Part shown: positions 12,874-39,474 of the stretch, piece by piece
How the letters are laid out: every line of letters starts with the position of its first letter
How positions within the stretch are numbered: the first letter of the stretch is position 1
Assembly (NCBI RefSeq): GCF_900021175.1
Contig: NZ_FCOP01000003.1
Span: forward strand, 1 to 64,000
Reading direction: 5' to 3'
DNA: 64,000 bases
Source: Pseudenterobacter timonensis
Lineage (GTDB): Bacteria > Pseudomonadota > Gammaproteobacteria > Enterobacterales > Enterobacteriaceae
The notes under the pieces: model-generated
Databases searched by the model: none
Seen by the model: only the letters and a program-made list of their open reading frames with translations
What the model was told of the DNA's origin: nothing
Made by a program: the position numbers and the translations under genes

Positions 12874-13105
12874 CCCCTCACCCCGGCCCTCTCCCCAAAG
12901 GGGAGAGGGGGAAAAGAAGCCCTCTCCCAAAAATTGCCGCCGAATGGTCCCCTCTCCCGGAAGTTGGCGCCGAACGGTTCCCTCTCCCGGAAGTTGGCAC
13001 CGAACGGTTCCCTCTCCCGGAAATTGGCGCCGAACGGTCCCCTCTCCCGGAAATTGGCACCGAACGGTTCCCTCTCCCCTCTGGGGAGAGGGTTAGGGTG
13101 AGGGG
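12874..13105. repeat. composite palindromic element with internal 30-bp tandem array
   Basis: Two inverted arms bound the element: left arm CCCCTCACCCCGG then CCTCTCCCC/GGGGAGAGG (12874-12910), right arm CCCTCTCCCC/GGGGAGAGGG then TTAGGGTGAGGGG (13070-13105). Between them are five direct repeats of exactly 30 bp starting at 12920, 12950, 12980, 13010 and 13040. Each unit begins CCCTCTCCC, continues GGAAGTTGGC or a variant and ends CCGAACGGTT. Unit 1 is the most diverged. The array gives repetitive open frames on both strands, but these look non-coding. It occupies most of the argE-ppc gap. Confidence 0.9.
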
Positions 13106-33478: not shown

Positions 33479-34456
33479 ATGTCTGAGATCAGCCGTACGC
33501 AAGCCTGGCTGGAAAGCCTGCGCCCCAAAACGCTCCCCCTCGCCTTCGCTGCGATTATTGTTGGCACCGCGCTTGCGTGGTGGCAGGGACATTTCGATCC
33601 GCTGGTAGCGCTGCTTGCGCTGATTACCGCCGGGCTGTTGCAAATCCTCTCTAACCTCGCGAACGACTATGGCGATGCGGTGAAAGGCAGCGATAAGCCA
33701 GACCGTATCGGGCCGCTGCGCGGTATGCAAAAGGGAGTGATAACCCAGGCGCAGATGAAGCGGGCATTAATTATCACCGTGGTGCTGATCTGTCTCTCCG
33801 GTCTGGCGCTGGTCTCGGTAGCCTGCAAAACCACCGCTGATTTTATCGGCTTCCTGGTGCTGGGCGGCCTGTCGATTGTCGCGGCGATTACCTATACCGT
33901 CGGCACGCGTCCCTATGGCTATATTGGCCTTGGCGATATCTCCGTCCTGGTCTTTTTCGGCTGGCTGAGCGTGATGGGGAGCTGGTATCTGCAGGCCCAC
34001 TCGCTGATCCCGGCGCTTTTCCTGCCGGCCACCGCGTGCGGGCTGCTGGCAACCGCGGTACTCAATATTAATAACCTGCGCGATATCGACAGCGACCGGA
34101 TTAACGGCAAAAACACGCTGGCGGTACGGCTTGGCGCGGGCAATGCCCGCCCCCACCACGCCTACCCGCTGATGGGCGCCCTGCTATGCCTGGCGCTGTT
34201 TACCCGCCGCTACCACGCCTACCTGCTGATGGGCGCCCTGCTCTGCCTGGCGCTGTTTAATCTTTTCTCCCTGCACAGCCTCTGGGGCTGGCTGTTTATT
34301 CTGGCGGCTCCGCTGCTGATTAAACAGGCCCGTTACGTGATGCGTGAGCAAAACGCCTCAGCTATGCCGCCAATGCTGGAACGTACGGTAAAAGGGGCGT
34401 TGCTTACTAATCTGTTGTTTGTCATCGGGATTGTTTTAAGCCAGATGCTGGGTTAA
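33479..34456 (+). CDS. menA: 1,4-dihydroxy-2-naphthoate octaprenyltransferase with internal duplication
   Basis: Inner-membrane UbiA-family prenyltransferase making demethylmenaquinone. Aspartate-rich motifs LANDYGDAVKGSDKPDRIGP and LRDIDSDRINGKNTLAVRLG are intact, and nine or so transmembrane segments are visible. The protein has 325 residues against about 308 in E. coli. The excess is a 19-codon in-frame tandem duplication (34146-34202 and 34203-34259, 53 of 57 bases identical), so RPHHAYPLMGALLCLALFT is followed by RRYHAYLLMGALLCLALFN. The second copy resembles the E. coli sequence; the first carries all the divergent residues, including a proline. The insert follows the second Asp-rich motif at the start of a membrane helix and may or may not allow function. 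Confidence 0.92.
   Translation: MSEISRTQAWLESLRPKTLPLAFAAIIVGTALAWWQGHFDPLVALLALITAGLLQILSNLANDYGDAVKGSDKPDRIGPLRGMQKGVITQAQMKRALIITVVLICLSGLALVSVACKTTADFIGFLVLGGLSIVAAITYTVGTRPYGYIGLGDISVLVFFGWLSVMGSWYLQAHSLIPALFLPATACGLLATAVLNINNLRDIDSDRINGKNTLAVRLGAGNARPHHAYPLMGALLCLALFTRRYHAYLLMGALLCLALFNLFSLHSLWGWLFILAAPLLIKQARYVMREQNASAMPPMLERTVKGALLTNLLFVIGIVLSQMLG
34146..34259 (+). repeat. 57-bp tandem duplication inside menA
   Basis: Two adjacent 57-bp copies differ at four positions (34152/34209, 34154/34211, 34167/34224, 34186/34243). The length is a multiple of three, so the frame is kept. The divergence between copies argues against an assembly artefact or a very recent slip. Confidence 0.93.
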
Positions 34457-35042: not shown

Positions 35043-35072
35043 GGCCATCTGATTTGCAGATGGCCTTTTTTC
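35043..35072 (+). terminator. intrinsic terminator of rraA
   Basis: Perfect stem GGCCATCTG / CAGATGGCC with a short loop, followed by TTTTTT. The A tract on its left lets it also serve the opposite-strand cassette that ends at 35071. Confidence 0.9.
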
Positions 35073-35466
35073 ACTTGGTTTCATCCATATCATAGTGAAT
35101 GACGCGTATTTCCACCTGCCCGTTTGATTTCTCAACCGAAACATTCATTGTTTCGTGGCGTTGCGGATACGTATTTATCCAGTCATCAAGCTGTTCAATG
35201 AGCGCATGAACATCGCTTTTCTTTATGTTGGTAAAAACTATTTCATTCGTTTTTAACCCACTCCCCTCGTCTGTTTGACTAAGGAAATACCATTGTTTTG
35301 ATACCCTTGGAACCTTTTTAAGAACATCTGGCGTCATCAACTGGTAACGAAAAAAATCATCTTGCGTATAACATTCTGGTACAAAAACTCTTGCCGCCAG
35401 GAATATGTATACCGCTCCTGTAATAGTAATAAAAATTCCAGAGATGATGAGTTTAGGGCTTTTCAT
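35071..35466 (-). CDS. uncharacterised single-pass membrane protein
   Basis: I do not recognise this 131-residue protein. Residues 1-28 (basic start MKSPK, then IISGIFITITGAVYIFLAA) form one membrane anchor or uncleaved signal. The rest is a small polar domain containing CYTQDDFFRYQLMTPDVLKK, a WYFLS segment, and a C-terminal strand-rich part (MNVSVEKSNGQVEIRVIHYD). It overlaps the gene before it by 4 nt (ATGA), so the two are translationally coupled. Base composition is clearly more AT-rich than the flanking housekeeping genes. It is not between rraA and zapB in E. coli, so it is likely an acquired gene. The function is unknown. Confidence 0.7.
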   Translation of the reverse strand: MKSPKLIISGIFITITGAVYIFLAARVFVPECYTQDDFFRYQLMTPDVLKKVPRVSKQWYFLSQTDEGSGLKTNEIVFTNIKKSDVHALIEQLDDWINTYPQRHETMNVSVEKSNGQVEIRVIHYDMDETK

Positions 35467-36131
35467 AAGCGAAGCTCACGAACATACTCTGGGCTTGCCA
35501 CAGGCGTTATCGAACTCATAAATGTGGGCAACGTCCCCGAATACGGTTTAAGATTACCTGTCTTTTCAATCGGATCGGGGAAAATAAGCGGAAGCACACT
35601 TTTATTTTTGTATTCACCAACCGGACCATAATGGTCCCAGATTCGGTATGCTTTCTCTTTTGGGCATATATGCAGATAAGCAGTATAATCCGCATAGTTA
35701 ACTGCCTGACAAAAGCCCAATAAATTTGAAACAAGGTCCTCAGCGCTATACCCACTGTCGGTTAAAACAATATAGGGCCATAAGTTCTGCAGTGATTCAA
35801 ATTGGTGAGATGTCCCCATAAATATTGATAGCGCCACTCCCTGTAAAACATGCTCACTAAGCCCTCGACGGACTAAAAATCGCCTGTATATTCCGGTAGT
35901 AATACCTGTTGCAAAAACATTAGTAGACATACTCTGGTGATAATTAACTTCGAACCATGTGTCGTCACCGCCATATGGCATAACCATTTGTTGCCATAGC
36001 CTTTCTGCGCCTCCAGGATTGGCATGGCCAAGATCGATCCATCCCAGATTATCGGTATAGACAAGGCCTTTTGGGGTATCACGCGTAATATATCTGTCAG
36101 AATTATCAATAATATCGCTTCGTTTTGTCAT
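35463..36131 (-). CDS. uncharacterised protein, first gene of AT-rich cassette
   Basis: The start at MTKRSDIIDNSDRYITRDTP is preceded by AGGGA and gives 222 residues; an upstream in-frame ATG would add 20 less plausible ones. There is no signal peptide or clear membrane helix. Notable segments are TPKGLVYTDNLGWIDLGHAN (about 19-38), a central FMGTSHQFESLQNLWPYIV, SAEDLVSNLLGFCQAVNY, and CPKEKAYRIWDHYGPVGEY. The GLVYT..GWIDLGH motif vaguely recalls the DUF4056 family, but I cannot confirm this. It is coupled by a 4-nt overlap to the membrane protein downstream. Low GC and an extra position relative to E. coli suggest horizontal gain. The function is unknown. Confidence 0.7.
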   Translation of the reverse strand: MTKRSDIIDNSDRYITRDTPKGLVYTDNLGWIDLGHANPGGAERLWQQMVMPYGGDDTWFEVNYHQSMSTNVFATGITTGIYRRFLVRRGLSEHVLQGVALSIFMGTSHQFESLQNLWPYIVLTDSGYSAEDLVSNLLGFCQAVNYADYTAYLHICPKEKAYRIWDHYGPVGEYKNKSVLPLIFPDPIEKTGNLKPYSGTLPTFMSSITPVASPEYVRELRL

Positions 36132-36176
36132 CTCGTATTCCCTGAGAACAACGTATTGCGCGATGATATTCCTCCA

Positions 36177-36207
36177 TAACAAAAAAGGCATCCATTAAGG
36201 ATGCCTT
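36177..36207 (-). terminator. intrinsic terminator of zapB
   Basis: AAGGCATCC / GGATGCCTT stem with a five-base loop, followed on the minus strand by TTTTTTG. It separates zapB from the AT-rich cassette. Confidence 0.85.
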
Positions 36208-39247: not shown

Positions 39248-39474
39248 CCCCTCACCCTAACCCTCTCCCCAATGGGGAGAGGGGACGATCGAGCTCAACG
39301 ACCAGAGTTTTCTTCCTCTCCCAAACGGACCCAGGGTTTAGGGGTTCCCCCTCTCCCCGCCGGGGAGAGGGGGGACGATCGAGCTCAACGATCAGAGTTT
39401 TCTTCCTTTACCAAACGGACCCACGGTTTAGGGGTTCCCCCTCTCCCCTATGGGGAGAGGGCCGGGGTGAGGGG
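39248..39474. repeat. composite palindromic element with ~90-bp duplication between glpK and glpX
   Basis: The outer arms are CCCCTCACCC-TAACCCTCTCCCC/GGGGAGAGG (39248-39284) and CCCTCTCCCC/GGGGAGAGGG-CCGGGGTGAGGGG (39439-39474). Inside, a unit starting CCCTCTCCCC occurs at 39261, 39349 and 39439 (periods 88 and 90 bp). The filler (GACGATCGAGCTCAACGA, CAGAGTTTTCTTCC, AACGGACCCA, GGTTTAGGGGTTCC) is repeated almost identically. Same family as at 12.9, 22.3 and 61.5 kb. It could uncouple glpX from glpFK. Confidence 0.88.

What the first reader, a model, noticed from the sequence alone, without database searches (positions are those of the whole stretch)
34146..34259. In-frame 57-bp tandem duplication within menA
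Directly seen: two adjacent 57-bp blocks differ at 4 positions, adding exactly 19 codons after the second Asp-rich motif (DIDSDRINGK) of a UbiA-family enzyme. The total length of 325 against about 308 in E. coli fits the insertion plus a two-residue shorter start. All the amino-acid differences lie in copy 1 (proline replaces leucine, histidine replaces tyrosine, proline replaces arginine), while copy 2 looks like the ancestral segment. This suggests that copy 1 is under relaxed constraint. The insert falls at the start of a membrane helix, so it may add a partial helix, shift register, or be tolerated in a loop.
Basis: partly seen in the sequence, partly recalled or inferred. Interest (0 to 1): 0.68.

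Follow-up and report, generated by a model that had tools for sequence, protein, structure and literature searches.

The report
Tolerated 57-bp repeat inside menA
One Enterobacter-like bacterium carries a menA gene (vitamin K2 synthesis) in which 57 bases are repeated in frame, adding 19 amino acids next to a membrane helix; it looks like a tolerated, lineage-specific change and is mainly a curiosity.

Summary
Two adjacent 57-bp units (34146-34202, 34203-34259; 53 of 57 bases identical) lie in frame in menA (33479-34456, 325 aa). All 109 related loci aligned (96 distinct menA genes) are single-copy, 303-309 aa. In a family survey, 72 of the 77 other genomes with a match give one continuous match of 849-852 bp (one with an internal stop); the other five are broken or partial. 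So the allele is private to this genome among those examined. The three amino-acid differences between the copies are derived in copy 1, at positions invariant or nearly so in relatives; copy 2 keeps every invariant residue. The rest of menA is under strong purifying selection (dN/dS 0.037 against the nearest relative), and menFDHBCE-like frames are present and open. AlphaFold2 gives nine long helices with and without the insert; copy 2 forms TM7, copy 1 a poorly predicted loop and a helix extension. Best reading: a tolerated partial duplication with copy 1 drifting. Activity was not tested. Low interest.

The parts
33479..34456 (+). menA, 1,4-dihydroxy-2-naphthoate polyprenyltransferase, 325 aa, with the insertion
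   Evidence: ORF; NF004754 637.5 bits, cut-off 522; TIGR00751 469.8 bits, cut-off 102.15; PF01040 UbiA
34146..34202 (+). copy 1 of the 57-bp unit (derived copy: P225, H226 and P230 where copy 2 has R, Y and L)
34203..34259 (+). copy 2 of the unit (keeps all residues invariant in relatives; native start of TM7)
34082..34111 (+). second Asp-rich motif DIDSDRINGK (residues 202-211), just upstream of the insert
   Evidence: sequence; role from PMC4106721 (passages and one section)
34160..34273 (+). predicted TM7 helix, residues 228-265; residues 228-241 come from copy 1
   Evidence: AlphaFold2 model of the window protein against the single-copy relative
34136..34150 (.). perfect inverted repeat (6-bp arms, 3-nt loop) straddling the left edge of the duplication; 0 of 109 relatives have a stem of 5 or more here
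   Evidence: mechanistic relevance is inference only

Best explanation
A single in-frame tandem duplication of 57 bp arose in the menA of this lineage after it split from its nearest sampled relative (a Leclercia sp. metagenome assembly, 85% identical in menA DNA). It duplicated the stretch from the end of cytoplasmic loop 6-7 into the first half of TM7. Copy 2 continues to act as the real start of TM7. Copy 1 is tolerated as an extra stretch of loop and helix on the cytoplasmic side, and it is drifting. The enzyme most likely still makes demethylmenaquinone. Shown: the sequence, its absence from the relatives examined, the direction of the three replacement changes, conservation of the rest. 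Inferred: retained activity, the topology of the insert, its origin by slippage or template switching.
For: Single-copy in 109 of 109 related loci and in 72 of 72 continuous full-length matches of other genomes in the family survey. Copy-1 changes hit residues that are 90/92, 92/92 and 92/92 conserved among distinct relative proteins, while copy 2 violates none; over the whole protein 147 of 147 invariant columns are kept. dN/dS outside the insert is 0.037 against the nearest relative and 0.043-0.073 against eight others; between the copies it is about 1.2, from only 3 replacement and 1 silent difference; the chance of at least 3 replacements in 4 at the gene-wide fraction is 0.01. Copy-to-copy dS is 0.068 against 0.783 to the nearest relative, which places the duplication after that split. 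AlphaFold2: nine long helices with and without the insert; copy 2 (blocks 241-260) is at pLDDT 88 and 97. Copy 1 has a 13-residue mostly hydrophobic stretch that includes a proline and is followed by RR; its best 19-residue hydropathy is 0.93, against 2.09 for TM7. The menFDHBCE-like cluster is present with open frames.
Against: Activity is untested. The insert lowers model confidence in loop 6-7: blocks 201-210 and 211-220 are at pLDDT 64 and 45, against 77 and 78 in the relative, and copy 1 itself is at 44 and 63 (blocks 221-240). Similarity to UBIAD1 also falls (TM-score by query 0.66 against 0.74). Reduced activity is therefore possible. MenA length is otherwise strictly kept, which suggests that insertions are normally selected against. 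The relaxed-constraint test is weak: with the unit's own replacement fraction among relatives (0.36) the chance of at least 3 in 4 is about 0.14 (hand calculation), and sites 7 and 9 may be one mutation event. Purifying selection on the rest of the gene could predate the duplication. Hydropathy does not settle topology: native TM8 scores only 1.18 by the same measure, not far above copy 1.
Confidence: 0.76

Rival explanations
1. Loss-of-function or weak allele: the insert disturbs loop 6-7 next to the Mg-binding motif, and menA is on its way to becoming a pseudogene, or this isolate is a respiratory small-colony-type variant.
For: Low predicted confidence of loop 6-7. Broken, partial or stop-containing menA does occur in the family: G465, G467, G485, G536, G539 and G548. 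Defects in menadione synthesis are described as a route to small colony variants in S. aureus (search listing and starts of abstracts only).
Against: No stop or frameshift. 147 of 147 invariant residues kept. dN/dS 0.037. The men cluster frames are open. Four differences between the copies suggest that the allele has persisted.
Confidence: 0.12
2. Adaptive change: copy 1, with its two prolines and the neighbouring private residues G221 and Y248, forms a new cytoplasmic helix or turn that alters substrate access or assembly of MenA.
For: Only four private residues lie outside copy 1 (2, 221, 248, 323), and the two that are not at the protein's ends flank or lie in the duplicated unit.
Against: Four changes are few; drift plus a locally error-prone event explains them. 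No second genome carrying the insert was found, so conservation cannot be shown.
Confidence: 0.06
3. Assembly or sequencing artefact.
For: Only one genome carries it; reads could not be inspected.
Against: The copies differ at four sites, the frame is kept, and the genome is listed as 99.99 complete and 0.09 contaminated, in 13 contigs. Both copies together (114 bp) would fit in an ordinary 150-base read (general knowledge).
Confidence: 0.05

Closest known systems
E. coli-type MenA (NCBIfam NF004754 / TIGR00751; UbiA family PF01040)
   Same: Family scores above the curated cut-offs, second Asp-rich motif intact, same plan of nine long helices as its relative, all 147 residues invariant in 92 distinct relative proteins
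   Different: 19 extra residues between loop 6-7 and TM7; the family models match it in two pieces
Short intragenic variable segments between bacterial strains (PMC2884548; passages only)
   Same: Tens of bases, within a gene, frame kept. The paper's passages report variable segments in 3-6% of genes, depending on genome and alignment, and attribute those at short repeats (most under 30 bp) to replication slippage
   Different: Here the gene is a length-conserved membrane enzyme, and the junction shows no shared base at either edge
Solved UbiA-type enzymes: UBIAD1 (8djk) and archaeal UbiA homologues (4tq3, 4od5)
   Same: 8djk is the best fold match of both models, and the archaeal enzymes follow; the 8djk/8djm sequence is also the only PDB sequence match at E up to 0.1
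   Different: They are distant (24% identity or less)

Membership tests
MenA (1,4-dihydroxy-2-naphthoate polyprenyltransferase) | Score above curated family cut-offs | tested here: met
   NF004754 637.5 against 522 bits; TIGR00751 469.8 against 102.15 bits
MenA (1,4-dihydroxy-2-naphthoate polyprenyltransferase) | Asp-rich Mg-binding motifs and residues invariant in relatives | tested here: met
   147 of 147 columns invariant in 92 distinct relative proteins are kept; the second Asp-rich motif DIDSD is intact
MenA (1,4-dihydroxy-2-naphthoate polyprenyltransferase) | Contiguous TM7 after loop 6-7, without an insert | tested here: not met
   19-residue insert; the family model breaks into two matches at 34201/34202. 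This is a length variant, not a different family.
MenA (1,4-dihydroxy-2-naphthoate polyprenyltransferase) | Prenyl transfer to DHNA / complementation of menA-deficient cells | not testable with these tools
   Needs bench work; assay described in PMC4106721 (passages and one section)
Simple tandem duplication | Two adjacent near-identical units, single in relatives | tested here: met
Simple tandem duplication | Microhomology at the junction, as expected of replication slippage | tested here: not met
   Bases beyond the unit do not match at either edge: G against A on the left, A against C on the right. Later mutation of an edge cannot be excluded.

The most novel reading that the evidence does not exclude
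The duplicated half-helix has been recruited: copy 1, reshaped by two helix-breaking prolines, forms a new cytoplasmic element next to the second Mg site that alters substrate handling by MenA, and was fixed by selection in this lineage.
Probability: 0.05. Interest if true: 0.45.

Novelty: new variant of a known kind. Interest (0 to 1): 0.2.

Why it matters
If the enzyme works with the insert, this is a natural example of a length-conserved membrane enzyme tolerating a duplicated half transmembrane helix beside its active-site loop, with the spare copy drifting away. That bears on how membrane proteins gain segments. It is a single allele in one genome, so the wider consequence is small.

Tried and rejected
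Recombination as the source of copy-1 differences: none of 109 relatives carries the copy-1 base at unit sites 7, 9 or 22, and no other template for the first 20 bases of copy 1 lies in the window within 3 mismatches, apart from copy 2 (the rest of the genome was not searched for this). An old trait of the group: not supported. A second transmembrane span formed by copy 1, which would flip TM8-TM9: thought unlikely from hydropathy and because it would put RR243-244 and the Lys/Arg-rich TM8-TM9 loop outside (inference); not excluded, since native TM8 itself scores only 1.18. Hairpin-driven origin: a perfect hairpin straddles the left edge, but 4.3% of window positions lie within 5 bp of an arm end of such a hairpin (123 in the window), so coincidence is quite possible; not claimed. 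Literature: listings for menA with tandem duplication or small colony variants showed, by titles and starts of abstracts, no paper on such an allele among the rows listed (20 of 730; 10 of 90, the Francisella genome paper among them not opened); some searches were general. I do not claim that it is absent from print.

Dropped or limited: one search kept 80 of 130 loci. In one search, 60 of 61 genomes match, 59 of them other than the window's own; 29 became loci and were aligned, and for the other 30 only the match coordinates were read, by eye, and they fit one copy. In one search only the best rows of 295 matching genomes were listed; every listed row but the window's own spans 849-864 bp by eye. 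In one search only 20 of 5375 records were listed. The two relative sets overlap (96 distinct DNA sequences of 109). The AlphaFold alignments used 50 of the 80 loci. The control genomes rang in 9 of 14 (6 over the cut-off), so the MenA model also picks up other UbiA-type proteins at low scores.

Full report
Observation. Window 34146-34202 and 34203-34259 are adjacent direct copies of a 57-bp unit, 53 of 57 bases identical. They lie in frame in a 325-codon ORF at 33479-34456, which scores as MenA above the curated cut-offs of NF004754 and TIGR00751 and as UbiA family. A scan of the window for adjacent copies at least 90% alike with periods of 20-150 finds only two other arrays, both between the large ORFs.

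Distribution. I aligned MenA from 109 loci: 29 from the same genus group and 80 from the species-level genome collection. All 109 are single-copy and 303-309 aa long, 63 of them 306 aa, exactly 19 fewer than here. They represent 96 distinct DNA sequences and 92 distinct aligned proteins. In a survey of 139 family genomes, 78 match the MenA model. One is the window's own, split at 34201/34202; 72 give one continuous match spanning 849-852 bp (one of them, G548, with an internal TGA); five are broken or partial. A survey of 394 genomes of the order showed 295 with a match; every listed row but the window's own spans 849-864 bp, but not all rows were listed. In the E. coli collection 5375 of 5426 genomes match; the 20 listed rows span 900 bp each in two pieces, which fits one copy. 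In the plasmid collection 12 records match, all with spans that fit one copy. The nearest relative, a Leclercia sp. metagenome-derived assembly (L031, identical in menA to L012), is 85.1% identical in menA DNA. No second genome of the window's own species was found in these searches.

Direction and pace of change. Of the four differences between copies, three change the protein: P, H and P in copy 1 where copy 2 has R, Y and L. The copy-2 base is found in 107, 109 and 109 of 109 relatives. Among distinct proteins these residues are R in 90 of 92, Y in 92 of 92 and L in 92 of 92. The fourth difference is silent; C is commonest among relatives (52 of 109), but the nearest relative has the copy-1 base A, so its direction is open. 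Both copies share a tyrosine where most relatives have cysteine (76 of 92), so that change came before the duplication or was shared afterwards by conversion. Outside the insert, dN/dS against the nearest relative is 0.037 (19.2 replacement, 117.8 silent differences) and 0.043-0.073 against eight other relatives; between the copies it is 1.2 (3 and 1). Three or more replacements in four would occur with probability 0.01 at the gene-wide fraction, but about 0.14 at the fraction seen in this unit among relatives (0.36; hand calculation). The sample is small, and sites 7 and 9 could be one event. Copy-to-copy dS of 0.068 against 0.783 to the nearest relative suggests that the duplication is younger than that split, with wide error. 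The longest identical run between copies is 18 bp, below the 30-bp threshold for RecA-dependent recombination in E. coli quoted in PMC2884548 (passage); this may help to stabilise the repeat (inference).

Function of the rest. All 147 columns invariant in the relatives are kept in the window protein when copy 2 is aligned as the native segment. Only four residues outside copy 1 are private: 2, 221, 248 and 323. The two that are not at the protein's ends, 221 and 248, lie beside or in the duplicated unit. A cluster of open frames that I recognise as menF, menD, menH, menB, menC and menE is present elsewhere in the genome; menD was identified by TIGR00173, the other names are recalled from their sequences.

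Structure. In the archaeal UbiA structure the Asp-rich motifs and loop 6-7 are cytoplasmic, and loop 6-7 is over 18 residues long with a short helical region; mutations at the equivalent Asp positions of E. [quoted passage not shown] AlphaFold2 gives nine long helices for both the window protein (mean pLDDT 78.3) and the single-copy relative (80.2). In the relative, TM7 runs from 214 to 246. In the window model, 213-218 is a separate short helix, and TM7 runs from 228 to 265, with 228-241 drawn from copy 1; it ends at the residue equivalent to the relative's 246. Loop 6-7 loses confidence: blocks 201-210 and 211-220 are at 64 and 45, against 77 and 78 in the relative; copy 1 is at 44 and 63 (blocks 221-240), copy 2 at 88 and 97 (blocks 241-260). 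Both models find UBIAD1 first in the PDB (TM-score by query 0.66 and 0.74). Copy 1 has two prolines in its first eight residues and a 13-residue mostly hydrophobic stretch followed by T-RR; its best 19-residue hydropathy is 0.93, against 2.09 for TM7, though native TM8 reaches only 1.18 (scales from memory). I infer that copy 1 does not span the membrane but forms a loop and a helix extension on the cytoplasmic side.

Origin. The junction shows no shared base at either edge, which does not favour simple slippage at existing short repeats; edge mutations could hide some. A perfect 6-bp hairpin straddles the left edge; none of the 109 relatives has a stem of 5 or more there. One of its bases belongs to the private glycine codon 221. 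This could mark a template-switch event, but 4.3% of window positions lie as close to such a hairpin, so I treat it as a lead.

Verdict. The finding is real and mostly well read: a lineage-specific, in-frame, partial tandem duplication in menA, probably tolerated, with copy 1 drifting and copy 2 doing the native job. Intragenic variable segments are not rare in bacteria: PMC2884548 reports them in 3-6% of genes, depending on genome and alignment (passages). The unusual point is its place in a membrane enzyme whose length is otherwise strictly kept in the genomes examined. Activity remains to be tested.

Noticed in passing
12920-13078: Array of about 5.3 copies of a 30-bp unit (CCCTCTCCC-type) between two large ORFs that look like argE and ppc (names recalled); TRF score 248.
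   Followed up: no
39261-39461: 2.3 copies of a 90-bp unit, also CCCTCTCCC-type, between ORFs that look like glpK and glpX (names recalled).
   Followed up: no
35071-36191, - strand: Two adjacent ORFs (131 and 242 aa) of unknown identity downstream of an rraA-like ORF (name recalled).
   Followed up: no
G465, G467, G485, G536, G539, G548: Broken, partial or stop-containing menA matches in other genomes of the family; G465, G536 and G548 are listed as 96-100 complete, the other three as 49-87.
   Followed up: no
G157, G296, G324 (genus g6), G424, G078 and G462: Genomes of 3.7-5.1 Mb in the same family listed without any MenA match, including the three genus-g6 genomes listed: possible natural loss of the menaquinone route.
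   Followed up: no
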